DNA from: a virus
Strand: one strand, 5' to 3'
IMG/VR virus record: IMGVR_UViG_3300011997_000001
Location: 1 to 49,579 of that record
DNA: 49,579 bases
Within the stretch, counting starts at the first letter, position 1, and each line of letters begins with the position of its first letter. Below the pieces are notes generated by a model. The model searched no databases, had not been told where the DNA came from, and saw only the letters and a program-made list of their open reading frames with translations. The position numbers and the translations under genes were made by a program. Shown piece after piece: positions 6,271 through 47,958 of the stretch.

Positions 6271-6639
6271 ATGCCACTACCAGCACCACTAGTTGAGGAT
6301 GTACCGACCGTCCCGGACCTGGTCCGTGCGGCGATGACCCGCAAGGGCATGTCGACCCGTGAGGTTGCCGAACGCGCCGACGGCCGGCTGTCCCATTCCC
6401 AGATCGCCCGGATCTGCCGGGGTGAGACTGCGCAGATTCAGGCTGACTCGCTGCGCGCCCTGTCCGAGGCGTTGAGCATTCCGATCACGAAGCTGCGGAA
6501 GGCCAACGGCCACCAGCCTCGGGTGCCCACCCCGTTCATCCTTCCTGAACGCGCCAACGAATTGAACATCGCCGAACGCCGGGTGGTTGTGAACATGATC
6601 GGTGCGCTGCTCGCAGCCCACGACAGTGCCCGCACGTGA
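6271..6639 (+). CDS. Second XRE-family regulator
   Basis: A 122-residue protein with a clear XRE domain: VRAAMTRKGMSTREVAERAD, then RLSHSQIARICRGETAQI as recognition helix, then LRALSEALSIPITKL. The C-terminal 45 residues are helical (LNIAERRVVVNMIGALLAA). CAGGAGG precedes ATG 6271 with good spacing. It is separated from the integrase by attP, so in the prophage it would sit at the opposite end from the integrase. It overlaps the next gene by GTGA. It may control prophage-end genes or excision; that is inference. Confidence 0.82.
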   Translation: MPLPAPLVEDVPTVPDLVRAAMTRKGMSTREVAERADGRLSHSQIARICRGETAQIQADSLRALSEALSIPITKLRKANGHQPRVPTPFILPERANELNIAERRVVVNMIGALLAAHDSART

Positions 6640-9767: not shown

Positions 9768-12107
9768 TCACTGGATCGGGCTCGGGTAGATCCGCCCCGA
9801 GATGAACGTCGAGGTCGGGGACCACTCAGCGACCCAGATCCAGCCGCCCTTGACTGAGTTGTACGTGAAGCCGCCCGTGTCCTTCAGTCGGCCGGTGAGC
9901 GTGCCGGAACCTTCCTGTCCGGGCCAGTACCCGGAAGCCGAGCCAGGACCGCCGAACGCCTCAATCAGGCCAAGGTCGTCCAGCGCGTCAGCCTTGGCCT
10001 CGGTGCGCCCAAACGGGTTGGTCCCCGACAGCGGGTCGCCCACGAGGTTGACGAGGTGCGCGGGTGTGACTGGTCCGGCGAAGAACGCCATGCAGAACGG
10101 TGCCGCAGGTGACTGGCTGCGAACGTCGAGCTTGGCGACCTGGCCGGCCGTGGACAGGGGGATGTGCAGGACGGTCCAGAGCCCGCCGTAGATGGCGTGC
10201 CTTGGGAGGATCCCGCCGTCGGACTCGCCGTCGAAGGGGACGATCTGGTCCTGGTCCATCCGGGAGCGCCGGTTGGTGCGGCCGGGCCTGCGGGCAGGGT
10301 CGACCATCGCCTCTTTGTTGCGCTGACGGATCGCAGCCAGGGTGATCGCATCGCGGGCGTGCTCGTCCACGGTGAGGGTGACGGACAGGTTGACCCAGTC
10401 ACGGTCCACGGCAGCGATATACAGCAACGGGTCGCCGCCGCCGTACCCAAGAGGCTTGATGTTCTGATCGGGCGTGATCAGGAACCGCGAGCCCTCGCGG
10501 GGGTCCGTGAGGAGCGTGACCGTCCCAGTCAGACCGGGGTCCTTGTCGCGGGCCAGCTCGAGTTTCGCGGAGGCTGTCGCGTCAGCCTTGGTGACGCCGG
10601 GGCCGTAGTCGGTGTCCCGCTCGTAGCGCATCGTGGACGTGTAACTGGGATTCGGCCCCTTGATCGCGCCGGAGGCGGTATAGAGGTACGGCTCGGTCTC
10701 TGTCGCGATAGCCAGCGGGCGACGGTACGCGCCCGTCAGGTCCCCGCCACCAGAGCCGACAGCGAACGTGGCATCCCAGGTTTGCGGGCCCACAATGCCG
10801 TCCACGAGCAGGCCGTAGTCAGCCTGGATCTGCCCGCAAATGCTGGCATCGGACGCGTTGAACACGCCGTCGAGCGGGACGTTGCCGGTCAGGTTCAGGT
10901 CGTTGACCCTGCGCTGCCAGTCAGTGACACCATGACCGGTGAGCGTGCCCGCATCGGTGTCGCCAATGCTCATCACAGTGGCACCGCTGGCGTAGGGGTA
11001 TGCCGGGGCGGTGTCGGCCATGAAGTTCGGGTAGCACCAGCCGGCCCAGGCGTAACCGTTCGGGGCGATGCCGCGACCGAACAGGGCGTTGGCTGTGGAG
11101 GTCATGTCGCGGCTGATGTTGATGTCCACGCCGCGAGCACCCACGGTCACCGTGTGGTGAACCGTCGTCGTGTCCTTGAGCTTGATGTCATACGTGCGAG
11201 CGGTGTTGGCGCGCTTGGCGACAGTCCACTGCGTTGTGGAGGTCCACGCGGTTGCGAGCAGGGACTGGACGTAGGCCATCTCGGAGTCGCCCGAGGACCC
11301 GCGGGCCATCGTGTTGATGCCCGTGTGGGGTGCGGCGATGGTTGGGTAACGGTGTGCCACGACGCCATTGAGGGCTTTGGCGATGACCGTGCCGATGTCG
11401 GTGGGGTCCATGATTGTCGGAACCCGATGGCCGAACGTGCTGGCCTGCCACGTGGTGCCGGACGCCCACCACGCGGTGCGAGACGAGCTGGCGTCGTTGC
11501 CACCGTCATCGGAGACCAGGTGCCCAGCCCACAGGCGTTTGATGGTGCCAGCGTTGAGCATGACGAGCTCGACCGTCGCGCCGGGGTGAAGCCAGGACAA
11601 CGAGCCCGTGCCAGAGGTGTCCTGCGGGGTGATCTGCGGGAAGTCGATGCTGAACTTCACGTCACCGAAGGGGCCTTCCTGGCGGTCGGACCCGATCGTG
11701 GTGGGCGCACCGCGCAGGTAGGTGACATCCACGCCGCCGATGATGACGTGAGGGACGCCCACGGTTTCGACGGTGCGGGCGTAGGAGTCGTAGACAGCAT
11801 CGCCGACCCGTACCCGGTGGTCGGTGCCGGGGGTCATTGCGGGCACGGTGATGGACTCGCGCATGATGGTGCGCTCGGTCAGCCCGACAGGTGGCAACGC
11901 CAGCGCGCCCACGGGCGGCAGGGACTCGGTGCCGGTGCCGATAATGGCGGGCGGGGTGTAGTCGAGGTCGCCTGTGTCGCTGGTGATTTCAAGGAAGGAC
12001 TGCTGGGAGAGGTCCGCAGACCAGCCGGCCAAAGCTGGCGTCATATAGCCGGGGACAACGTTCCCGGGCCTGCTAAGTACGGTGCCGAGTTGGCCGGTGA
12101 ACGCCAC
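9768..12107 (-). CDS. Tail-tip/minor tail protein with embedded peptidoglycan-binding unit
   Basis: A 779-residue structural protein. The middle (about residues 395-445) holds a peptidoglycan-binding-like unit: SICGQIQADYGLLVDGIVGP followed by QTWDATF, the same DGIxGPxTW signature as in the endolysin. The N-terminal part is beta-rich. The last 100 residues (HIPLSTAGQVAKLDVRSQ, then GGWIWVAEW) look like a separate jelly-roll or binding domain. GTG 12107 has AAGGGG upstream. It may contact the cell wall during entry. The upstream gene in the same strand is 1 kb away because a rightward gene intervenes. Confidence 0.78.
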   Translation of the reverse strand: MAFTGQLGTVLSRPGNVVPGYMTPALAGWSADLSQQSFLEITSDTGDLDYTPPAIIGTGTESLPPVGALALPPVGLTERTIMRESITVPAMTPGTDHRVRVGDAVYDSYARTVETVGVPHVIIGGVDVTYLRGAPTTIGSDRQEGPFGDVKFSIDFPQITPQDTSGTGSLSWLHPGATVELVMLNAGTIKRLWAGHLVSDDGGNDASSSRTAWWASGTTWQASTFGHRVPTIMDPTDIGTVIAKALNGVVAHRYPTIAAPHTGINTMARGSSGDSEMAYVQSLLATAWTSTTQWTVAKRANTARTYDIKLKDTTTVHHTVTVGARGVDINISRDMTSTANALFGRGIAPNGYAWAGWCYPNFMADTAPAYPYASGATVMSIGDTDAGTLTGHGVTDWQRRVNDLNLTGNVPLDGVFNASDASICGQIQADYGLLVDGIVGPQTWDATFAVGSGGGDLTGAYRRPLAIATETEPYLYTASGAIKGPNPSYTSTMRYERDTDYGPGVTKADATASAKLELARDKDPGLTGTVTLLTDPREGSRFLITPDQNIKPLGYGGGDPLLYIAAVDRDWVNLSVTLTVDEHARDAITLAAIRQRNKEAMVDPARRPGRTNRRSRMDQDQIVPFDGESDGGILPRHAIYGGLWTVLHIPLSTAGQVAKLDVRSQSPAAPFCMAFFAGPVTPAHLVNLVGDPLSGTNPFGRTEAKADALDDLGLIEAFGGPGSASGYWPGQEGSGTLTGRLKDTGGFTYNSVKGGWIWVAEWSPTSTFISGRIYPSPIQ

Positions 12108-12262
12108 GAGTCAGCCCCTTACGTCGTTGTTGGAGTGGGCGGCCACATCATGAGGTTAGGGCTGCAGGTTCAGGGTGTCGCTTGACCCGCCGGGGTGCTC
12201 AGGTGCCTGTCCCAGAGCCGGGACTTATGGGCGGGGGTCAGTAGGCGTCAGTCCCAAGCCCG

Positions 12263-12268
12263 TACTCT
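12263..12268 (+). promoter_or_regulatory. Predicted -10 box for a leaderless transcript
   Basis: TACTCT (TAnnnT) ends six bases before the ATG at 12275, and there is no Shine-Dalgarno match in the 20 bases upstream. In actinobacteria that spacing places the transcription start on the ATG itself, giving a leaderless mRNA. No good -35 is seen. The remainder of the gap 12108-12274 shows no gene. Confidence 0.45.
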
Positions 12269-12274
12269 CAGCAC

Positions 12275-13096
12275 ATGGCCAACAACCGGGGACGTCAGAG
12301 TGGAAACAGCGCGGCCAACGTCGGCCTCGCCGTAGGTGCGGTCATCGTCATCGCGATGGTTGGCTATGTCCTGACCAGGAGCACGGACACTGCAGCCGTT
12401 CCATCGGGATTGCCGACATCCGCCACAACGACGAGCAGCGCGCCAACGAAGGCGTCCATCGCCGCGCCGACGGTGCCCCTGTTGATCGAGGACGACTTCA
12501 CGAAGGCGCCGGATGGGAAGCCCACGAAGGCGGCAACCGGCCAGACCTACAGCATCGTGGAAACCGGCCTGAACACCTCGGGCATGACCGTCAGCGGCGG
12601 GCTTCTGCGTCACGGCGCTCCAACGGCCCGCAACGGCGCCAGCTACCTTGAAGCGCGCCTACCCGGTGACGTGCAGCGGATCGGGGCCGACGCAGTGTTC
12701 TCGAAGAACTCCGCGTTCATCGCACTGGTCGTCTGGCAAACGTCGCTCGCCGAAGCTCGCAACAAGACCGCGCCAGGACCCATACCTCGCGCTGGCATCC
12801 ACTTCGTGGCGGGCCCCCACGGCTGGCACCTCGGTATCTACACCGGCAAGGGTGAGGACATCCTGAAGACGGTGAACTTTCCGTCTGCACTGGTCGCCGA
12901 TGGGCAGACTGCTCACACGTTCGAGGTGACCCGCAAAGGCGATGAGGCTTGGGTCACCGCCCCCGACGGGACGGTCACCGGCCCGATCACCGACCCGCGG
13001 ATCTCTGACTGGGCCGGCCGATGGCCATGCTGGGAGCTGTACGAGTTCACGCCGGATATGAAGCCTGCCGCGTTCGCGAAGATCTGGGCAGGATAG
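12275..13096 (+). CDS. Membrane-anchored homolog of the tail receptor-binding domain (lysogenic moron candidate)
   Basis: A 273-residue protein read against the direction of the tail operon. Basic N-terminus (NNRGRQ), one membrane helix (about residues 14-34, ANVGLAVGAVIVIAMVGYVL), a Thr/Ser/Ala/Pro linker to about 68, then a globular domain to the end. Topology should be N-in, C-out. The domain (about 120-273) is homologous to residues 250-400 of the neighbouring tail protein: ASYLEARLPGDVQRIGA against AGYLQASLGARVRRIGA (10 of 17 identical), CWELYEF against IWELFEN, and the end FAKIWAG against FGAIWAD. Own promoter and opposite strand mark it as a moron. I infer display of the phage's binding domain on lysogens, probably for superinfection exclusion. 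Confidence 0.8.
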   Translation: MANNRGRQSGNSAANVGLAVGAVIVIAMVGYVLTRSTDTAAVPSGLPTSATTTSSAPTKASIAAPTVPLLIEDDFTKAPDGKPTKAATGQTYSIVETGLNTSGMTVSGGLLRHGAPTARNGASYLEARLPGDVQRIGADAVFSKNSAFIALVVWQTSLAEARNKTAPGPIPRAGIHFVAGPHGWHLGIYTGKGEDILKTVNFPSALVADGQTAHTFEVTRKGDEAWVTAPDGTVTGPITDPRISDWAGRWPCWELYEFTPDMKPAAFAKIWAG

Positions 13097-13125
13097 ACCG
13101 GGCTGCTTATGTCCCGAGGGCGGGG

Positions 13126-14712
13126 TCAGAAGATGTTGACGTTCATCGAGCGACCGATCTCCACGAACACCGCGCCCAAGTAGCGGAACCGGAACACGTC
13201 GCGGCGGTTCGCCCCAGTGGACAGAACCGGCGCGACCCCACCAGCCCACTTGATCGCGGCAGCAGCCCCGGCCAGAGTTCGGCTACCAGTGCCGTCCTGC
13301 ATGAAGTGAATCTCGAACTCTTGCTGCCCACCCTTGGGGTTGGTGAACGTCAGTGCAGTGATGTTGCCGTTGAGCGTCAACTGGTGTATCTGCGCCAGGG
13401 ACAGATCAAGAGTCACCGCACCGTTGGCCGTTAGCGCGCCAGGTGGAGCATTCGGGGAGTCCACTGCGGCCCGATATGGCGACGGCCCAGCGTCAGGGCC
13501 AAGTGGTCCGCTGTCGGCCCATATCGCCCCGAACGTCACTGGGACGTCGGTCACGCCGTCGTTCTCGAACAACTCCCAGATTCCGTAGTTCGCGGTCTCA
13601 GTATTGAAGTAGGCGCTGGTCACAATCGACCTGGAGCCGTCCGGCCAGCACAGCACAGCACGGCTGTTGTCGGTGTCGATCCAGAAGTCGAACGGTTGCG
13701 GGCCGGCCCCCCAGACGGTAGCGAACCTGCCGTGGGTGACGTAAGACGCCAGTGTTGTTGCTGCCCCCCCTGCCCACCGGGAGAGGGTCCATATGCCGTT
13801 GCCGTTGATAGTCAGGTGGAACCCCGCGTTTGGCAGGGTGCCGCTGGCCCACGGCGCGGACGGAATGACGAACGCGGCTACCCCGAGGGCGTTTAGAGGC
13901 CAGGAGATCATGGCCCCGATCCGACGTACTCGCGCCCCGAGGCTGGCTTGCAGGTATCCGGCCGAGACTGCCCCGGCGTAGGGGGTGTGCGCGATGACCC
14001 CGGCTGCGATCACCGGGAGTTCGGTGTGCCCAGGCGCGGTGAAGGTCGTGAACGGCTGCCCGGTGTCGGCGGTGCCGCCAATCGCGCCGTCTGCCTTCCC
14101 TGCCGGGTCGTATCGCAGGGACGCGCGATGCGGCACATAGGTGGAACTAAGGGTCCAGTTCGCGGGGGTGAATGTCGACCCGGACGTGTGCCCCGCGATC
14201 GCACTGACGACGTCGTTGCCAGGAGACACGACCTGCTGGCCGAGGGTGTACGCCATGGTCGGTGCCCAGCGAGGGACCATCGGAGCGACGGCGGCAGTAG
14301 CAGCCCCAGCGGCGTCGTAGTCGGTCGTGGCATGGGTGGCAGCCGTGCCGAGCCCGAGGTTCGTCCGGGCCGTGGTCGCGCTGGCTAGGTTGGAAAGGTT
14401 CGCGGCACTGTCGGTCGCCGCTTGGGCAGCGATCTTCGTGTCGACGTGGTTGCCCAACGCTGCCGCTGTGATGACGTGGGTCACTGGCACCGCAGCCGAG
14501 TGGGCCGCAGCCAGCGCCGCACACGTCCACGTCGTGCCCGACACGTTGGTGACCGTGACGATCTCCGTGTCGATGATGACCCGGAACTGTGACACGCCCG
14601 TCACCGCGGCAGGGAACCCCGACGACGACGCCACAGTGAACGACGTCGCACCAATCGCGGGAGACGACGACAGGGAAGTGACCGCGTTGTCGGCAAACAG
14701 TTCAGACGGCAT
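13126..14712 (-). CDS. Tail fibre/receptor-binding protein candidate, 528 aa
   Basis: The N-terminal 100 residues are Ala/Thr/Ser-rich repeats typical of tail-attachment regions (VTSLSSSPAIGATSFTVASS, then RVIIDTEIVTVTNVSGTTWT). Residues 100-140 carry a NLASATTARTNLGLG segment common in phage fibres. Residues 250-400 form the domain shared with the membrane protein at 12275 (RRIGAMISW, GFHLTINGNGIWTLSRW, FDFWIDTDNSRAVLCWPDGS, FGAIWAD). The last 110 residues repeat a TLDLSLAQIHQLTLNGNITA fibre-tip motif known from many phage tail proteins. Receptor binding is inferred from domain layout and position. Confidence 0.78.
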   Translation of the reverse strand: MPSELFADNAVTSLSSSPAIGATSFTVASSSGFPAAVTGVSQFRVIIDTEIVTVTNVSGTTWTCAALAAAHSAAVPVTHVITAAALGNHVDTKIAAQAATDSAANLSNLASATTARTNLGLGTAATHATTDYDAAGAATAAVAPMVPRWAPTMAYTLGQQVVSPGNDVVSAIAGHTSGSTFTPANWTLSSTYVPHRASLRYDPAGKADGAIGGTADTGQPFTTFTAPGHTELPVIAAGVIAHTPYAGAVSAGYLQASLGARVRRIGAMISWPLNALGVAAFVIPSAPWASGTLPNAGFHLTINGNGIWTLSRWAGGAATTLASYVTHGRFATVWGAGPQPFDFWIDTDNSRAVLCWPDGSRSIVTSAYFNTETANYGIWELFENDGVTDVPVTFGAIWADSGPLGPDAGPSPYRAAVDSPNAPPGALTANGAVTLDLSLAQIHQLTLNGNITALTFTNPKGGQQEFEIHFMQDGTGSRTLAGAAAAIKWAGGVAPVLSTGANRRDVFRFRYLGAVFVEIGRSMNVNIF

Positions 14713-15594: not shown

Positions 15595-18500
15595 TCACTG
15601 ACTCCCAAGGTTGCGGGCACGAAGCTGCTCGTCGTAGGCCTGGCGGGCGTCCTGTTGGTCACGGAAGTGGGCGTGCTCGATGTGCAGCGGGAACTCCGAC
15701 GTGCGGGTTTCGTGGACGGGGACCTTGACGACCTGCACCGCTCCCCCACCCCACGGCGAAGCCACCCGCGACCCCAGGGGCCCACCGTCGGCGTACCGGG
15801 GCAGGCGGCGCTTGTTGATCGCGTCCATGAAGTCGGTGCCGTAGAAGTCGTGCGCGGCCACGGACTGGATGTACTCGCGCGGGTTGGCCCGGATCGTCAC
15901 GTTGTCGACCTTCGGACCCAAGAACATGCCCGGGACCACGCCACCATCAGCGCCGCCCCACTTGGGCTTCTTCGGTGCGAACGGCCCCAGCGGGTTAGGC
16001 ACGAGCACGTTGTCCGCAGCCTTGCCCGGGTACCCCTCCAGGCCCTTACCGAAGGACGCCACCACGTTGACCCTCGCCGTCGCCACGGAACCGTCGATGC
16101 CCCCCAGCGCATACATGACCCCATCAATGACCGGGGTAGCGGCCGAGGCGTCCACCGTGACGCGGCCGTTGATCCCAGCCTCCAGCTGGTTCTTCAACGC
16201 CTGAGCCTTGCCCGCCGTCACATCGATGGCCTTCGCTCCGGGCTTCAAACCCGTATCGATGTCGATACCGAAGTCCGCAGCGACCCGTCGGACGTCAGCA
16301 GCTGACACGCCCAGCTTCTTCGCGAGCTCGTCGATCGTGAGCTTGCCCTTGGTTGCCAGGGTTGCCTGCTGGACCTGCATCGCGACAGGGAGGTCCTTCA
16401 CGGCCTGGTCGGTGGCCGAGCCCACCGCGATCGCCGTCAGCCGGGCTTGGGCCACCACGATCAGGTTCAGGCGAGCGAGCTGGGTTTCGGAGTCGTTGAC
16501 CATCTTGATCAACTTCCCGGAGTGATCCGAGAGGATCGTCTGCAGGATCGGCCCAGCCTGCTTCGGGCCCTGCTCGAGGAGCCGGGAGATGACGCTCACA
16601 TCCAGGCCCTTGGCGGTGGCTGTGGTGATGTCCCTGGAGAACTGGCTGGCTTGGGCGATGGTCGCCTTGTACGTGGCTTTCAGACCGGTGGACGCGGCCG
16701 CGGCGTGCGCGTCACCGACACCCTTCTGCGCTTCGGCCACGCCACGCTGAGCCCGGGCCAAGGCCTGCGTATCGGACAGGGTCCGCTTCTTCTTCGCCGC
16801 AACCCGGGCCTCGACGTCAGCCAGGGACTGCTGGGACTTCTTCAGCTTCTCGTTGGACTTGGTGACCTTGTCCGCGCCCGCGGTGGGGTCGAACTGGCCC
16901 AACACGTCAGTGCCACCCTTGAACGCGCTCGAGGCCTTGTCCTGCGCGTCCTGCAACGCCTTGGCGTAGGCCTCCATAGCGTCAATGTCGGTGCCGATAT
17001 GCCCAGCCATGGCCTTGGTCGACAGCCCGGTCTGCTTCTCGAGGTCGACGACGTAGGCGCGCAGCTTCAGCATCTCGTCGCCGGCGTCTTTGGGTGCCTT
17101 GGACAGGTCGACGTTCTGGGACTTGGCGAGCTTGATCAGGGCTGCGTCGGTCAGCCCGGTGGTGGCTCGTAGCCCTCCGAGGTTCGCTGCCGCGTTGCCG
17201 GCACGTTCCTTGAGCACTTCGAGGGACTTGGCGGCCGCGGCGCCGTCGTTGGCGACCTTCGCGAGCTCCTCGTTGTGGAACAGCAGGGAGAACCCGCCCT
17301 TGATCACACCCAGGGTCCCCTGGTACTGCTTGCCGAGCTCGTTCGCCGCCATCGCGGTCTTGGTCAGCTCGTCGACCCCGCCCTGCAGCTTCGCCGGATC
17401 CAGCACGTCCGTGGAGGAGCCCATGCCCTCGAACGTGGTCTTGGCCTTCTGGGCGGCGTCGTCCATCATCATGAACGCGCTGGCGGCCAGGAACAGCGCA
17501 GCGCCAATACCCAGCGTGGCGATGGTCTGCACGGACAGCATGGACGCGGCCAGGGCCCGCAGGGCCACCGTGCCACCCTCAGCGGCCGTCATCAGGCCCA
17601 CCAGGCCCATAATGACCGGAGTCAGGATCATCTTGTTGAACATCACCTGCACCGCGGCCAGGCTGGGGAGCAGGGACGCGGCATACACGGCAGCCAACAG
17701 CAGAACAATGTCCTTGTGGTCGGCGGCGAACCCGGTCGCCGCAGCCAACGCTTGGGCGATCGCGGTCAGACCCGCGACCACAGCCCCACCAGCCAGCGCG
17801 GCCAAGGCACCCACAGCTGGTGCGGCGACCTGCGCGATGGCCTTGAGCATGGTGACCACGTCCACGCCGATAGCCCACAACGCGGCGAACAGGGGGGTCA
17901 GGGCGCGGACCCCGGCCTGCAGGTCGGGTGCTGCACCCTTGGCCAGGTCCATCATCGACTTCATCAGCGTGGTCAGCACCGGCAGCAGCTTCAGGCCGAC
18001 CTCGATCGTGCCCGCCTTGATCGCGTTCACGACCAGCTGCCACTGCGCGGACGCGGACTTCATCTGCTCGGCCAACGCCACCGCGGTGGCCCCGGCACCG
18101 GCATGCGCGGCAGACCACCCGGCGATGACGCCGGTGTACAGCTTGCCCTGGTCTGAAGTCAGCGCCAGCGCGCCCTTGAGCGAGCGGATGTCGGTGAACA
18201 ACGAGGACATGGTCGTGACGTTGCCGCCGGTGACCTTCTGCAGGTCGGCCATCACCCCGGACAGGCCCTTGCTCCCCAGTGCCGCAGCGCCGGACTCATA
18301 CCCCAGGGACTTGAACACCGCGGTCAGGGCGTCGCCGGGGGTGATTAGCTGGGCCATCAGCTGGTTCAGGGCAGTGAACGCCTCAGCCGGTTTGATCCCG
18401 GCCTTGGTCATCGTGGCGATCGCCTGGCCGACGCCGTCGATGCTGATCCCGGCGGCCGAGGCGGTGCCGATGACGTCGCCGATGCCCTGCCCGAGCTGGT

Positions 18501-19275
18501 CGAACGTCAGCACGCCCAGGTTCACGGTCTGGAACAAGGTGTCCGAGACGTCCTTGGCGCTGGCCGCGGACAGGCCGTAAGCGTTCAACACCCCAGAGAT
18601 GGCCTGGGCGGCCACCGCGGTCGTGCTGATGCCGGCGGAGGCGGCCTTGGCGGACGCGTCCAGGACCTGCAGGCCGGCCGCGCCCTGGAACCCGGAGGAC
18701 GCGATGTCGTACAGGCCCGCAGCCAGCACAGTGGCTTCCTGCGGCAACGTCTTGGACAGGTCCAGCACACTCTGGCTGAGCCCACCCAGGGCGATCTCGC
18801 TCATCCCTGTGATGGAGTTGACGTTGCGCATCTGCGCCTCGAACTGCGCACTCAGCTGGATGCCGCCGGCGAACGCGGTGAGCAACTGACGCCCCAGCAT
18901 GAAGGCCGCGGCCGAGGCCAACCCAAGCCCGGCTGCGACCCGCAACCCACCTACCGAGTAGTACTCAGACAGGCGCAGGGCGATCTTGGCATGCCGATCG
19001 GCCTGGTCGGCGGCCTTGCCCGTCGCGATCCCCACAGCCTGCATGCCAGAGGCGGTGGTCTTCGACGACGTGCGGGTCCGCTGCGCGGTCTTCTCGGCGG
19101 TCGCCCCGAGCTTGGCGGTGGCGGCCTCGGTGGCCCCCATGGACTTGGTTGCGCCGCGCTGCCCGGTCTCGACCTCTTTGGCGAACGAGCGGATCGACGC
19201 CTTGGCTTCGGCTAGGCGCTTGTCCAGGGATGCGTTGGATCCGGTGATCTTGACGCCGATAACGCGCACACCCAT
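15595..19275 (-). CDS. Tape measure protein (TP901 type)
   Basis: A 1,226-residue protein, the longest in the genome. The N-terminal 120 residues are coiled coil (ASLDKRLAEAKASIRSFAKE). The TP901-type core follows: LSAQFEAQMRNVNSITGMSE, LDLSKTLPQEATVLAAGLYD, NAYGLSAASAKDVSDTLFQT. Hydrophobic helices come in the middle (VVTMLKAIAQVAAPAVGALA, LASMLSVQTIATLGIGAALF). Near residue 800 there is a charged coiled coil. At about 0.15 nm per residue, a tail of roughly 180 nm is predicted. There is no lysozyme-like motif that I can see. It directly follows the tail chaperone pair. Confidence 0.95.
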   Translation of the reverse strand: MGVRVIGVKITGSNASLDKRLAEAKASIRSFAKEVETGQRGATKSMGATEAATAKLGATAEKTAQRTRTSSKTTASGMQAVGIATGKAADQADRHAKIALRLSEYYSVGGLRVAAGLGLASAAAFMLGRQLLTAFAGGIQLSAQFEAQMRNVNSITGMSEIALGGLSQSVLDLSKTLPQEATVLAAGLYDIASSGFQGAAGLQVLDASAKAASAGISTTAVAAQAISGVLNAYGLSAASAKDVSDTLFQTVNLGVLTFDQLGQGIGDVIGTASAAGISIDGVGQAIATMTKAGIKPAEAFTALNQLMAQLITPGDALTAVFKSLGYESGAAALGSKGLSGVMADLQKVTGGNVTTMSSLFTDIRSLKGALALTSDQGKLYTGVIAGWSAAHAGAGATAVALAEQMKSASAQWQLVVNAIKAGTIEVGLKLLPVLTTLMKSMMDLAKGAAPDLQAGVRALTPLFAALWAIGVDVVTMLKAIAQVAAPAVGALAALAGGAVVAGLTAIAQALAAATGFAADHKDIVLLLAAVYAASLLPSLAAVQVMFNKMILTPVIMGLVGLMTAAEGGTVALRALAASMLSVQTIATLGIGAALFLAASAFMMMDDAAQKAKTTFEGMGSSTDVLDPAKLQGGVDELTKTAMAANELGKQYQGTLGVIKGGFSLLFHNEELAKVANDGAAAAKSLEVLKERAGNAAANLGGLRATTGLTDAALIKLAKSQNVDLSKAPKDAGDEMLKLRAYVVDLEKQTGLSTKAMAGHIGTDIDAMEAYAKALQDAQDKASSAFKGGTDVLGQFDPTAGADKVTKSNEKLKKSQQSLADVEARVAAKKKRTLSDTQALARAQRGVAEAQKGVGDAHAAAASTGLKATYKATIAQASQFSRDITTATAKGLDVSVISRLLEQGPKQAGPILQTILSDHSGKLIKMVNDSETQLARLNLIVVAQARLTAIAVGSATDQAVKDLPVAMQVQQATLATKGKLTIDELAKKLGVSAADVRRVAADFGIDIDTGLKPGAKAIDVTAGKAQALKNQLEAGINGRVTVDASAATPVIDGVMYALGGIDGSVATARVNVVASFGKGLEGYPGKAADNVLVPNPLGPFAPKKPKWGGADGGVVPGMFLGPKVDNVTIRANPREYIQSVAAHDFYGTDFMDAINKRRLPRYADGGPLGSRVASPWGGGAVQVVKVPVHETRTSEFPLHIEHAHFRDQQDARQAYDEQLRARNLGSQ

Positions 19276-31200: not shown

Positions 31201-31286
31201 GCTACTCAGCGCAGAGGATTCGGGCACGCGGTAGGAGATAACCCAGCCTTGATGCCGCGAGGGCTTCAGCGGACTGGGTGTTCACG

Positions 31287-31361
31287 TGGCAGGAGTGGGA
31301 TTCGAACCCACGACCTCCGGCTTATGGGGCCGGCGAGCTGACCGAACTGCTCTACCCTGCT
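31287..31361 (-). tRNA. tRNA-Met(CAU), initiator-like
   Basis: A 75-nt cloverleaf: acceptor AGCAGGG/TCCTGCC, D-arm GAGC/GCTC, anticodon stem CCGGC/GCCGG with loop CCCATAA (anticodon CAT), variable AGGTC, T-arm GTGGG-TTCGAAT-CCCAC, discriminator A. CCA is not encoded. Initiator hallmarks: A1-C72 mismatch, A11:T24 pair, G-C-only pairs at 29-31/39-41. C33 replaces the universal U33. A GCTGGT/ACCAGC inverted repeat lies at the 5' end (31359-31380). It is in the gap between terminase and portal and is transcribed with them. Confidence 0.85.
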
Positions 31362-44271: not shown

Positions 44272-45194
44272 GCCGCACTCTCCTTTTGTGATCCAGAGCG
44301 AGGGATTGCTGGCGCTACACCACAGTCCTGTCGGGAGCGCAGGACCGTGCGATCGGGAACGCCGAGGCGCACCGCGATCTGCTGGTCACTCAGCCCTTGC
44401 GTGACGAGGCGTCGGATCGCTTCATCACGCTCATTTGGTCGCAGGGTGATGGTGCGGTTGCCTTCGCTAGCAAGTTGGACTGCGACGTGGTCGATCAGGT
44501 CGTTCTGCTCGAGGTGCCCGCGTTCGTCGGCGCGGATCGTGTCTTCCCAGCACTGACCGCACGCGACCTGACCGATGATGACGCGAGTGTCCTGGTGGTC
44601 GCAGGCGTCGCCAGCTGCTCCGCCGAGGCGGTGATGCGGGCGTAACCACGCAGAGCGGAGAGGTGCGGTCGTCGCGGTCCCTGAGCGAGTCTCCTTGACC
44701 TGCTTGGCGAGTGTTGTGGCGGCGAAGATGGTCATCGTCTTGTTGGTGACCATGTCCTGCGCTTCGACCGGTAGCGCCAAGAGCAGGAGGCGGCCACGAA
44801 TAGTCGCGGCGCTGTAGCCCGTCTGAACCGAGACCTCTGCGACGGTGGCGCCTGCCTGTCGGAGAGCGTGAAACGCGTTGGCCTGTTCGATCGGTGCGAG
44901 CGCCTTGTGCATCGCGGCTGCGAGCATCACTGCCATCGTCTGCTGCCTGCCTTGGGGTGGAGTGATCAAAGCGGGCAACGCCGGCACGTGAGCCATGCGC
45001 GCTGCTCGGTAGCGGCGCTCACCGTCGACCAGCTGGTACCCACCAGGGGTCGGGGTGACAATGATCGGTTGCAGCAGCCCGTAGATCCTGATCGACGCGG
45101 CGAGTTCAGTGAGGTCGCCCAAGTCCTTGCGGACGTTGTCCCGTGAGGGCTTGATGGAATCGACTGGCAAAACGCGCATGCTGATCTGGGTCAT
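44268..45194 (-). CDS. ParB-like protein with C-terminal helix-turn-helix
   Basis: 308 residues. N-terminal ParB/Srx domain: VLPVDSIKPSRDNVRKDLGD, LAASIRIYGLLQPIIVTPTP, YQLVDGERRYRAARMA. A KorB/ParB-type HTH follows (TVAEVSVQTGYSAATIRGRL). C-terminal third: CDHQDTRVIIGQVACGQCWE and an HTH module homologous to that of the next gene. ATG 45194 overlaps the methyltransferase stop. It might mark or segregate phage DNA or act as a regulator. No ParA is nearby. Confidence 0.86.
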   Translation of the reverse strand: MTQISMRVLPVDSIKPSRDNVRKDLGDLTELAASIRIYGLLQPIIVTPTPGGYQLVDGERRYRAARMAHVPALPALITPPQGRQQTMAVMLAAAMHKALAPIEQANAFHALRQAGATVAEVSVQTGYSAATIRGRLLLLALPVEAQDMVTNKTMTIFAATTLAKQVKETRSGTATTAPLRSAWLRPHHRLGGAAGDACDHQDTRVIIGQVACGQCWEDTIRADERGHLEQNDLIDHVAVQLASEGNRTITLRPNERDEAIRRLVTQGLSDQQIAVRLGVPDRTVLRSRQDCGVAPAIPRSGSQKESAA

Positions 45195-46834
45195 GCCGCT
45201 TCGCCTGTGATGGCTGCGGAGACGGCGCCGATCAGGTCGCGTGCGGCTGGTGGGGTGACGGCGTTGCCAGCCATCCTGACCCGCTCACGGCGCGTGCCTT
45301 CCCAGATGTACGTCCCAGGGAACGCCATGCCTGCGGCGACCTCTGCCGGTTCGAGCATCCGGAACATGCAGTCGTCGACGGTGGCCTCGGCGGCGGCGAG
45401 CTCACCAGGGGTGATGACTGACTGCTGCGCCGTGGTCGTCAGCGTCCGCAACGCTTCCCATGCCGGTGTGGTCATCTCTGCGCCGTCACCCTGGCTGCTG
45501 TAGTGCCTGGTGATGAGCGCGTACCGGTCGACGGTGGTCAGTGTGCCCAGGGCTGCGTCCGTGGACTTAGCGGACTGGGTGGCCCCGAAGTAGGGGGTGA
45601 TCAGGCCGTGGTGTTGTCCGTTGGCGGCGAACGTGTCGAGCGGCTCGGCAGTGGATCGGTGCGAGCGCAGGACCTGGGCATCGCTGGTACCGCGCAGCAT
45701 CGCCATGAACGGTGGGAACACGACGCCTTCGCTCTCTCGGGCGGTGCGAGTGCGCATCACGTCGTTCGCTGAGGTCGCGGTCTCGTTCCACGTCCCGCCG
45801 GCCGGGGTCAACAGCGGTGGGATCGCCAAGCCCTTGGACTCGATGGTGTGCAACGTCTTCAGGACGTCATCGGTCGACCACGCCCGGTAGTAGCCGTTCG
45901 GGTCTCCGTAGGCCTGGTGCTTGGGGTCGGCCGCGTCGTAGGTGTGCCCGGCAGCTTCGAGGTGGACTGGGCCCCAGTAGCGGGCGATCCCAGCAGCGAT
46001 GCGGCGGCGGGTCTTGTCAGCGAGGGGCTTGTCCCTGTCGCCGATCTTGGAACCTTTGATGGTCCAGTCGATCGCGGCAGATGCTGGCAGCCAGCCGGGC
46101 TCGACGATCTGGTTGCGGCATGAGGTGTTGGGGCATCGATAGACGTACTGGGAGCGGTACCGGCCTCCAGGGGATTGCGGCTTCTTCCACGACTGGACCG
46201 CTGCCACGACGGTTTCGCAGACGGGGCAGTAGGCCTTGGGGCGCTGCATGGCATCGAGGTCGGGTGCGCGCTCACCTTTGCGCCAGAACACGACGTACAT
46301 CCGGTCTCGGGACTGCGGTGCGGGTAGACCACCAGCTTGGGCGTGCATCGAGTTCAGGAACACCAGGCGGTGCTCATACCCGAAGGCGTGCATAGCCATC
46401 AGCCACGCGTCGAACGGTTCCCAGCGCTGCACGTCGATGACGTTCTCGACGATGATCGCCCGGTACCTGTGCGCCTCAGTGAAGCGGGGCACGTCCCACA
46501 TGGTGGCCCTGGATCGTTCGGCGGCCTCATCGGGCAGGGTCTCCCCGAACAGGTCAGGTTGGCCGGTCTCACGTTTGCGACCTTTGGCCTGGGAGTGGTT
46601 CGTGCATTCCGGTGACGCCCACAGGATGTCCGTGCTGGGGAACAGTCGCGGGTTGTACTGGGAGATGTCAGCGCACACGTGGTCGGCGTTCGGGTGGTTG
46701 GCGTTGTGGACGTCGACGGCCTTCTGCCAGTGGTTCGCGGCGACCCGCACCTTCACGCCGGGGACGAACGTGCCACCGGTGGAGGATCCGCCCGCGCCAG
46801 CGAACAGGTCTGTCATGGTCAGGTTGTGACTCAC
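45191..46834 (-). CDS. C5 DNA cytosine methyltransferase
   Basis: 547 residues. Motif I TDLFAGAGGSSTG (residues 8-20), motif IV ILWASPECTNHS with catalytic C77, motif VI IIVENVID (E130-N131-V132), motif VIII SRDRMYVVFW, and motif X GNAVTPPAARDLIG near the end. A zinc ribbon (C203, C206, C234, C239) is inserted in the target-recognition region. PPC is replaced by SPEC as in some phage enzymes. GTG 46834 overlaps the ParB-like stop. It should methylate phage DNA against host restriction; specificity not predictable here. No cognate restriction enzyme is present. Confidence 0.93.
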   Translation of the reverse strand: MSHNLTMTDLFAGAGGSSTGGTFVPGVKVRVAANHWQKAVDVHNANHPNADHVCADISQYNPRLFPSTDILWASPECTNHSQAKGRKRETGQPDLFGETLPDEAAERSRATMWDVPRFTEAHRYRAIIVENVIDVQRWEPFDAWLMAMHAFGYEHRLVFLNSMHAQAGGLPAPQSRDRMYVVFWRKGERAPDLDAMQRPKAYCPVCETVVAAVQSWKKPQSPGGRYRSQYVYRCPNTSCRNQIVEPGWLPASAAIDWTIKGSKIGDRDKPLADKTRRRIAAGIARYWGPVHLEAAGHTYDAADPKHQAYGDPNGYYRAWSTDDVLKTLHTIESKGLAIPPLLTPAGGTWNETATSANDVMRTRTARESEGVVFPPFMAMLRGTSDAQVLRSHRSTAEPLDTFAANGQHHGLITPYFGATQSAKSTDAALGTLTTVDRYALITRHYSSQGDGAEMTTPAWEALRTLTTTAQQSVITPGELAAAEATVDDCMFRMLEPAEVAAGMAFPGTYIWEGTRRERVRMAGNAVTPPAARDLIGAVSAAITGEAA

Positions 46835-47958
46835 GACGCGTCGCCCATCAGCTCGAGCTCAGCGGGTGACCACTCGTACCCGTAGACCGTGCCCAAGGTG
46901 TGCCGCCACCCCTTGGTGTGGGACTGCCTCCACGCGGACGCGGACCGGGCCAGGTCCATGTCGCGTTGCAGGCCGCCAATGACATCCAGGGCGATCATGG
47001 CCTGGGGCAGGGTCATGGTGCGGATCCGGCGTTCGTACCCGGCGCCGAGGACCTTGGTCATGATGGCCGGGTCGTAGAACATGGCCTCCGCTGCCTGCCG
47101 GACGCGGGCCCGGGCGACGGACAGGGCGATGTCGATGTCGCCTTCGGTGATGACGCCGGCGAGGTAGTCGTGACGGCAGCGGGCTGCAGTGTCCAGGGTG
47201 CGGAGCAAGGTCGCGCGGGCTGTGCGGCCTTCGGGGATCTGGTTGACCTGCTCGGGGGTGGCCTCGGTCGGTGCGCTCTTGGCCACGGCCGGTTCCGCTG
47301 GGGGCGGGTTCTCGGCGGCTTCCTTGGCTCTCGCGATGTCGCCCTTGGCCTGGTTGAGCTTCCACGACCAGTCGCGGGTCCCGACAGACTTGGCGAGCTC
47401 TTCGACAACACCCAGGTCGGTGAACGCGGCGAGCTCCAGGGCGTCGCTGATGGTCAGCTGGCCACGGTCGACACCGTTGCGGGCCTGCTCGGGCAGGTGC
47501 GCCAGAGACAGTCGGCCTTCGACGTAGGTGCGGGTCCGGCCGAGCTTCTTCGCGATCAGGGTCGGGGTGTAGTTCGGGAACTCCATGAGCGCCTGGTACC
47601 CGTCGGCTTCTTCGGTGACGGTCAGGTCTTTGCGGTGCCCGTTCTCGATGAGCATCGTCTCGAGCTGCTTCTCGGGGGTGTCCAGGTCGTGGCGGATGAT
47701 GCACGGCACGGTGTCGAGTCCGGCGTCGACGGCGCCGGCGAGGCGGCGGTGGCCTGCGATGAGCGTGTACCGGTACGAGGCCTTCAGGGGTGCGGCGACG
47801 ACCAGCGGTTCGATGATCCCGGCCTCTTTGATGGACGCGGCGAGCTCTTCCATCTTGGCGGGGGTGCCGAGGTCGTGGCGGGCGTTGCGTGGGTGCGGGG
47901 CGATGGACGCGATGGCGATCTCGAGGAACGTGGTTTTGTGTAAGGCGGTCTTGGGCAT
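46831..47958 (-). CDS. ParB-like partition/regulatory protein
   Basis: 375 residues. FLEIAIASIAPHPRNARHDL, LAASIKEAGIIEPLVVAAPL, YTLIAGHRRLAGAVDAGLDT are the ParB N-domain; IENGHRKDLTVTEEADGYQA and PTLIAKKLGRTRTYVEGRLS the HTH. Long C-terminal helical part (ITEGDIDIALSVARARVRQA). ATG 47958. First of three genes in the ParB-methyltransferase-ParB cassette. No ParA or obvious parS array seen. Confidence 0.88.
   Translation of the reverse strand: MPKTALHKTTFLEIAIASIAPHPRNARHDLGTPAKMEELAASIKEAGIIEPLVVAAPLKASYRYTLIAGHRRLAGAVDAGLDTVPCIIRHDLDTPEKQLETMLIENGHRKDLTVTEEADGYQALMEFPNYTPTLIAKKLGRTRTYVEGRLSLAHLPEQARNGVDRGQLTISDALELAAFTDLGVVEELAKSVGTRDWSWKLNQAKGDIARAKEAAENPPPAEPAVAKSAPTEATPEQVNQIPEGRTARATLLRTLDTAARCRHDYLAGVITEGDIDIALSVARARVRQAAEAMFYDPAIMTKVLGAGYERRIRTMTLPQAMIALDVIGGLQRDMDLARSASAWRQSHTKGWRHTLGTVYGYEWSPAELELMGDAS

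What the first reader, a model, noticed from the sequence alone, without database searches (positions are those of the whole stretch)
12275..14712. A membrane-anchored copy of the phage's own tail receptor-binding domain, on the opposite strand inside the tail operon
Sequence shows: the rightward gene 12275-13096 encodes one N-terminal membrane helix, a Thr/Ser/Ala/Pro linker and a domain aligning with residues about 250-400 of the leftward tail protein next door (ASYLEARLPGDVQRIGA vs AGYLQASLGARVRRIGA, 10 of 17 identical; both end F-x-x-IWA). Known: rightward genes inside leftward late operons are usually prophage-expressed morons, and some phage lysogens mask receptors with surface proteins. 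Inference: the lysogen displays the phage's binding domain on its surface, occupying or competing for the receptor, and so excludes the same and related phages. A decoy made by duplicating the phage's own adhesin is, as far as I know, not a described class.
Basis: partly seen in the sequence, partly recalled or inferred. Interest (0 to 1): 0.82.

Follow-up and report, generated by a model that had tools for sequence, protein, structure and literature searches.

The report
Prophage-type gene for membrane-anchored lectin-like protein
A temperate phage of an actinobacterium-like host carries, backwards inside its tail operon, a gene for a membrane-anchored sugar-binding-type protein whose domain is a distant relative (not a copy) of a domain on the phage's own tail, so it may help the carrier cell shut out other phages, but that is untested.

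Summary
The anatomy is real. Gene 12275-13096 (+) codes 273 aa: one N-terminal membrane helix, a Thr/Ser/Ala/Pro linker and a ~205-aa domain homologous to residues ~199-402 of the adjacent leftward tail protein (BLASTP E 8e-8; 12.9 SD above shuffles). Both domains model as the same concanavalin-A-like lectin sandwich. The closest solved phage domain by TM-score is the mycobacteriophage Douge central fibre, domains of which bind host glycans. "A copy of the phage's own domain" is not supported: the tail domain is 62% identical to a domain in another phage's neck-region gene, while the membrane protein is only 28-32% identical to every known member, least of all to its neighbour. Three relatives (hub 75-84% identical) lack both genes and carry other adhesin genes in that slot; one has its own opposite-strand gene, an Acyl_transf_3 enzyme, nearby. 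The start has no Shine-Dalgarno sequence and a TANNNT box at exactly -12..-7, suggesting leaderless expression from its own promoter. Best reading: a surface-acting cargo gene of a temperate phage, likely for superinfection exclusion, possibly by saturating a membrane-proximal glycan. No function is shown. The occupancy principle is already known for filamentous-phage pIII, so this is a new variant of a known kind.

The parts
12275..13096 (+). gene of the membrane-anchored lectin-like protein (P0001, 273 aa)
   Evidence: open frame with coding GC pattern; antisense frames lack it
12263..12268 (+). TACTCT, TANNNT-type -10 box at exactly -12..-7 of the ATG; no Shine-Dalgarno; putative leaderless promoter
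   Evidence: 0.6% of shuffled upstream regions; 0.18% of all ATG/GTG in the window; motif and spacing as in PMC3898074. Post hoc, not experimental
12320..12376 (+). N-terminal transmembrane helix, residues 16-34
   Evidence: hydropathy 2.42
12377..12472 (+). Thr/Ser/Ala/Pro linker, residues 35-66 (78% T/S/A/P)
12470..13093 (+). ConA-like lectin-type domain X, residues 66-273
13126..14712 (-). tail fibre/adhesin gene (P0002, 528 aa), convergent with P0001
   Evidence: C-terminus matches PHROG tail fibre families, E 2.8e-10
13507..14118 (-). domain X in the tail protein, residues 199-402
14128..14280 (-). short repeat-type module of the tail protein (residues 145-195) shared with Arthrobacter phage tail proteins; resembles chitin-binding type CBM by eye
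   Evidence: phrog_11373 E 2.4e-8; tblastn hits; L004 holds several such repeats
9768..12107 (-). tail hub-type protein with a peptidoglycan-binding-type segment; divergent from P0001
   Evidence: phrog_1493 match at residues 348-456; 75-84% identical in three relatives
15595..19275 (-). tape measure protein by size and position; marks the tail operon
   Evidence: 70% identical in L010 and L011
4787..6034 (+). tyrosine integrase (temperate lifestyle)
   Evidence: phrog_1 E 1.2e-54
6271..6639 (+). Cro/C1-type HTH protein next to the integrase
   Evidence: Pfam HTH_3 E 2.8e-7

Best explanation
It is a cargo (moron-type) gene of a temperate, probably actinobacterial, siphophage. It encodes a single-pass, membrane-anchored protein whose outer domain is a concanavalin-A-like, glycan-binding-type sandwich from the same rare family that these phages use as modules on the virion (tail fibre here, neck-region protein in another phage). 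Shown: gene, anatomy, homology, predicted fold, opposite orientation, absence from relatives. Inferred: it is made from its own leaderless promoter in the lysogen, sits just outside the membrane, binds an envelope glycan, and by occupying a membrane-proximal glycan or by contacting an incoming tail it impedes superinfection after first adsorption. It was not made by copying the adjacent tail domain.
For: Homology and fold. Best TM-score to a solved phage protein is the Douge central fibre (0.68, rmsd 3.2 A); recombinant domains of that fibre bind mycobacterial arabinomannan and alpha-glucan (PMC13033339), although which fibre domain was matched was not resolved here. Integrase and HTH genes mark a temperate phage. 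Opposite strand, convergent with the tail gene and divergent from the hub. TACTCT exactly at -12..-7, no Shine-Dalgarno, while the tail, integrase and HTH genes have purine-rich SD-like stretches. Relatives with 70-84% identical neighbours lack it, so it is an accessory gene. One relative (L011) carries a different opposite-strand gene, an Acyl_transf_3 enzyme, a kind known from prophage seroconversion and superinfection exclusion (D3 Oac, PMC11436027).
Against: No expression, glycan-binding or exclusion data. No relative of the membrane protein with its helix and linker was found in phage records, plasmids, IMG/VR or the genome scans, so there is no independent conservation of the arrangement. 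The ConA-like fold is also used for non-sugar functions. G+C equals the genome's (65% against 67%), so composition does not mark it as recent cargo. No terminator was found. A cleaved signal peptide cannot be excluded.
Confidence: 0.45

Rival explanations
1. Decoy: a duplicate of this phage's own receptor-binding domain, displayed on the lysogen's surface, occupies the same receptor and excludes the same phage.
For: Same fold and detectable homology to the neighbouring tail domain; both genes lie in a slot that relatives fill with other genes; receptor saturation by a virion adsorption protein is known for filamentous phage pIII.
Against: The tail domain groups with another phage's neck-region protein (62% identity, bootstrap 99); the membrane protein is 28% identical to its neighbour but 32% to Gordonia phage Sadboi gp4, so shared ligand specificity is not implied. 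A membrane-tethered domain with a short linker probably cannot reach the outer wall surface, and envelope glycans are too abundant to be masked easily (inference).
Confidence: 0.15
2. Host-benefit cargo: a membrane-anchored lectin-like protein that alters envelope organisation, adhesion or glycan handling of the lysogen, with no role against phages.
For: ConA-like domains are common in bacterial surface adhesins (SraP and YwfG among fold matches); prophage-encoded surface adhesins are known (PblB, PMC4508584, found).
Against: All sequence-detectable relatives of the domain are virion or phage structural-region proteins; no host homologue was found, though host genomes could be searched only by sparse patterns.
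Confidence: 0.25
3. Ltp-like exclusion: the domain contacts a protein of the incoming virion (tail tip or tape measure) at the membrane and stalls DNA entry, without using its sugar site.
For: Same overall plan as Ltp of TP-J34 (membrane anchor, disordered linker, outer domain; target the tape measure protein) and the Ltp-like gp41 of Cutibacterium phages (PMC3952083, PMC11480721).
Against: No sequence or fold relation to Ltp was found; no lipobox; the domain has no strong net charge (19 K/R, 21 D/E), unlike the acidic Ltp patch.
Confidence: 0.1
4. A former tail-gene module inverted into the operon and now non-functional, or a protein whose signal peptide is cleaved so that it acts in solution.
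For: No relatives with the same architecture; the stretch after the helix has a weak cleavage-like TAA site (by eye in the sequence).
Against: Intact frame with normal codon-position bias, intact fold core and a well-placed promoter-like box argue for maintained function.
Confidence: 0.05

Closest known systems
Gordonia phage Sadboi/GretelLyn gp4 (annotated 'lipase')
   Same: Closest full-domain homologue of the membrane protein: 32% identity, best BFVD match, E 3e-17, TM 0.76.
   Different: Encoded right after the portal gene on the structural strand, no membrane helix.
Mycobacteriophage Douge central fibre gp20 (8zdp/8zdq)
   Same: Same ConA-like fold (TM 0.68 to the tail domain, 0.51 to the membrane domain); domains of this fibre bind host glycans experimentally (PMC13033339).
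   Different: Virion protein, 12% sequence identity, no membrane anchor; which fibre domain was matched was not established here.
Filamentous phage pIII superinfection immunity (Ff phages)
   Same: Principle: the phage's adsorption protein, made in the infected cell, saturates a receptor (TolA) and blocks superinfection (PMC7070036).
   Different: Uses the virion protein itself, Gram-negative host, no sequence relation; not a separate paralogue gene.
Ltp superinfection-exclusion lipoproteins (TP-J34) and Cutibacterium phage gp41
   Same: Temperate-phage or pseudolysogen membrane-anchored outer domain on a flexible linker.
   Different: Helical or cystatin-like domains, lipoprotein anchor for Ltp, target is the tape measure protein.
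Prophage acyltransferases (Oac type), as in relative L011
   Same: Surface-acting lysogenic-conversion cargo, on the opposite strand of the late operon in a related phage.
   Different: An integral membrane enzyme that modifies glycans, not a glycan-binding-type protein.

Membership tests
ConA-like lectin/glucanase fold (L-type lectin-like) | Two-sheet antiparallel beta sandwich | tested here: met
   AlphaFold2 models (pLDDT 76 and 84) and Foldseek matches to legume lectins, VIP36, GH16, galectins, E down to 2.5e-6
ConA-like lectin/glucanase fold (L-type lectin-like) | Carbohydrate binding | not testable with these tools
   Inferred only from fold and the Douge fibre data
Duplicate of the neighbouring tail receptor-binding domain | Nearest relative is the tail domain of the same phage | tested here: not met
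   Tail domain pairs with L006 (62%, bootstrap 99); membrane domain 28% to neighbour, 29% to L006, 32% to Sadboi
Prophage-expressed moron | Opposite strand to the surrounding late operon, accessory in relatives | tested here: met
Prophage-expressed moron | Own promoter | tested here: inconclusive
   TACTCT at -12..-7 and no SD; sigma-70 consensus scan found none
Prophage-expressed moron | Own terminator | tested here: not met
   No terminator-like site
Superinfection-exclusion protein | Blocks infection when expressed | not testable with these tools
   Needs expression and plating
Ltp family | Signal-peptidase II lipobox and HTH-repeat domain | tested here: not met
   No lipobox, only Cys is residue 252; beta sandwich
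DUF7257 (Pfam) phage domain | Match to the Pfam model | tested here: not met
   No Pfam match at E<=1 except a weak helix match, DUF5665, although DUF7257 proteins are among the fold matches
GH16 glucanase | E-x-D-x-x-E catalytic motif | tested here: not met
   Motif not seen in the printed sequence (by eye)

The most novel reading that the evidence does not exclude
Temperate tailed phages keep, beside their adhesin gene, a membrane-tethered paralogue of the virion's glycan-binding module that saturates the same class of envelope glycan near the membrane, so that lysogens exclude phages using that glycan: a pIII-like receptor-occupancy immunity in tailed phages by a dedicated paralogue.
Probability: 0.2. 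Interest if true: 0.75.

Novelty: new variant of a known kind. Interest (0 to 1): 0.42.

Why it matters
Receptors and entry steps of phages of actinobacteria are poorly known. If the protein binds the glycan that phages of this kind use close to the membrane, it would be a ready probe for that receptor and would extend receptor-occupancy immunity, known from filamentous phages, to tailed phages with a dedicated paralogous gene. If it only alters the lysogen's surface, it still documents a virion-type lectin module reused as a membrane protein.

Tried and rejected
Relatives of the membrane protein: none in 50,697 phage records even at E 10, 72,556 plasmids, IMG/VR pattern scans; both genome scans found nothing confirmed but rested on one or two peptide patterns, so they are weak negatives. 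Profile scans found only L006/L007/L017 (one contig) and Sadboi. PDB sequence search: nothing. Pfam and PHROG: no domain for the membrane protein. Considered and rejected: recent duplication of the neighbour; a catalytic GH16 enzyme (no motif); a spurious antisense frame. Literature: nothing found on a membrane-anchored paralogue of a tailed-phage adhesin domain, in an open-licence library only.

Full report
Observation. The rightward gene at 12275-13096 is a real coding sequence: its third-position GC is 0.80 in a genome where neighbouring genes show the same bias, and the antisense frames lack it. It encodes 273 residues: a basic N-terminus, one helix (16-34), a linker of which 78% is T/S/A/P, and a ~205-residue domain. 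That domain is homologous to residues ~199-402 of the 528-residue tail protein at 13126-14712 on the other strand (BLASTP E 8e-8; 12.9 SD above shuffles).

The domain. AlphaFold2 models of both domains, built from a four-sequence alignment, have the same order of strands (pLDDT 76 and 84). Because both predictions used the same four sequences, their agreement is not fully independent. Foldseek places them in the concanavalin-A-like lectin/glucanase fold. The best TM-score of the tail domain in the listed hits is to the central fibre of mycobacteriophage Douge (0.68 by query length, rmsd about 3.2 A). Recombinant domains of that fibre bind M. smegmatis and fragments of its arabinomannan and alpha-glucan (PMC13033339); which of its domains was matched here was not determined. 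Among predicted viral structures the membrane domain matches Gordonia phage GretelLyn 'lipase' (E 3e-17) and then many actinophage minor tail proteins. Glycan binding is therefore a reasonable inference for both domains, not a result.

Not a copy of its neighbour. Only four members of the sequence family could be found: the two here, gp4 of Gordonia phages Sadboi/GretelLyn, and a domain fused to a short N-terminus in a gene between the portal/capsid gene and the tail genes of an IMG/VR contig (L006, 5119-6126). The tail domain is 62% identical to L006 and groups with it (bootstrap 99 on a four-sequence tree); the membrane domain is 32% identical to Sadboi, 29% to L006 and 28% to its own neighbour. 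The two genes of this phage are remote paralogues. Either the membrane gene came from elsewhere or it diverged long ago, so shared receptor specificity cannot be assumed.

Setting. The window is a virus record of 49,579 bases. It has a tyrosine integrase and a Cro/C1-type HTH gene, hence a temperate phage; the terminase is nearest to phages of Arthrobacter, Brevibacterium and other mainly actinobacterial hosts. Three relatives share the hub protein at 75-84%, and two of them the tape measure protein at 70%. All three lack both the membrane gene and the tail protein; these records are fragments, but the slot itself is covered. The slot between the 133-residue gene and the hub holds other genes, some with F5/8-type C domains. 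So the gene is an accessory in or beside a variable adhesin cassette. One relative, L011, carries another opposite-strand gene further down the operon, an Acyl_transf_3 enzyme at about 11133-12094 with its own Shine-Dalgarno-like GGGAGGGG. That kind of gene is known from prophages that alter surface glycans, for example D3 Oac (PMC11436027).

Expression. A sigma-70 consensus scan found no promoter, but the ATG has no Shine-Dalgarno sequence and has TACTCT at exactly -12..-7. TANNNT is the -10 motif found 7-12 bases upstream of 73% of primary starts in M. tuberculosis, where a quarter of genes are leaderless (PMC3898074). Such a hexamer sits at exactly that place in 0.6% of shuffled upstream regions and before 0.18% of all ATG/GTG in the window. 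This is a post hoc sign of own, leaderless transcription. No terminator was found; the convergent stops are 29 bases apart.

Mechanism. The best reading is a membrane-anchored, glycan-binding-type cargo protein of the lysogen acting at the envelope, most likely in superinfection exclusion. With one helix, a ~32-residue linker (at most about 11 nm if fully stretched) and no wall-anchor motif, the domain should stay near the membrane under a Gram-positive wall (inference from general knowledge). That favours interference with a late, membrane-proximal step over masking of the outer surface. The principle of an adsorption protein saturating a receptor from within the infected cell is established for filamentous phages (pIII and TolA; PMC7070036); membrane-anchored exclusion proteins on linkers are established for Ltp (PMC3952083) and proposed for Cutibacterium phage gp41 (PMC11480721). 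No sequence relation to any of these was seen. The main rival is surface cargo with no antiphage role.

Verdict. Real and somewhat unusual anatomy; the 'own copy' premise is contradicted, the decoy function is untested, and the principle has a precedent. New variant of a known kind, moderate interest.

Noticed in passing
L011:11133-12094 (-): A related phage carries an Acyl_transf_3 (OafA-type) gene on the opposite strand between a tail gene and the lysis genes: a likely surface-modifying lysogenic-conversion gene.
   Followed up: partly
window 12108-14712; L009:317-2373; L010:5498-7187; L011:6372-8000: The stretch between the 133-residue gene and the conserved hub core is replaced by unrelated genes and domains (F5/8-type C and others) among four related phages: a variable adhesin cassette.
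   Followed up: partly
L006:5119-6126: Domain X is fused into a neck-region protein of another phage, and in Sadboi lies right after the portal gene, so this lectin-type module moves between tail, neck and head-proximal genes.
   Followed up: partly
L003:3410-4804: Sadboi/GretelLyn gp4 is annotated 'lipase', but its central part is this ConA-like domain; the annotation looks doubtful.
   Followed up: no
window 31286-31361 (-): A tRNA-Met gene (anticodon CAT) lies inside the late region, next to the terminase gene.
   Followed up: no
window 45191-47958 (-): A C5 cytosine methyltransferase gene directly beside a ParB-like gene.
   Followed up: no
window 9768-12107 (-): The tail hub-type protein contains a peptidoglycan-binding-type segment like that of the phage's endolysin (phrog_1493); its relatives match Pfam PG_binding_1 there, and have extended N-termini with extra domains or repeats.
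   Followed up: partly
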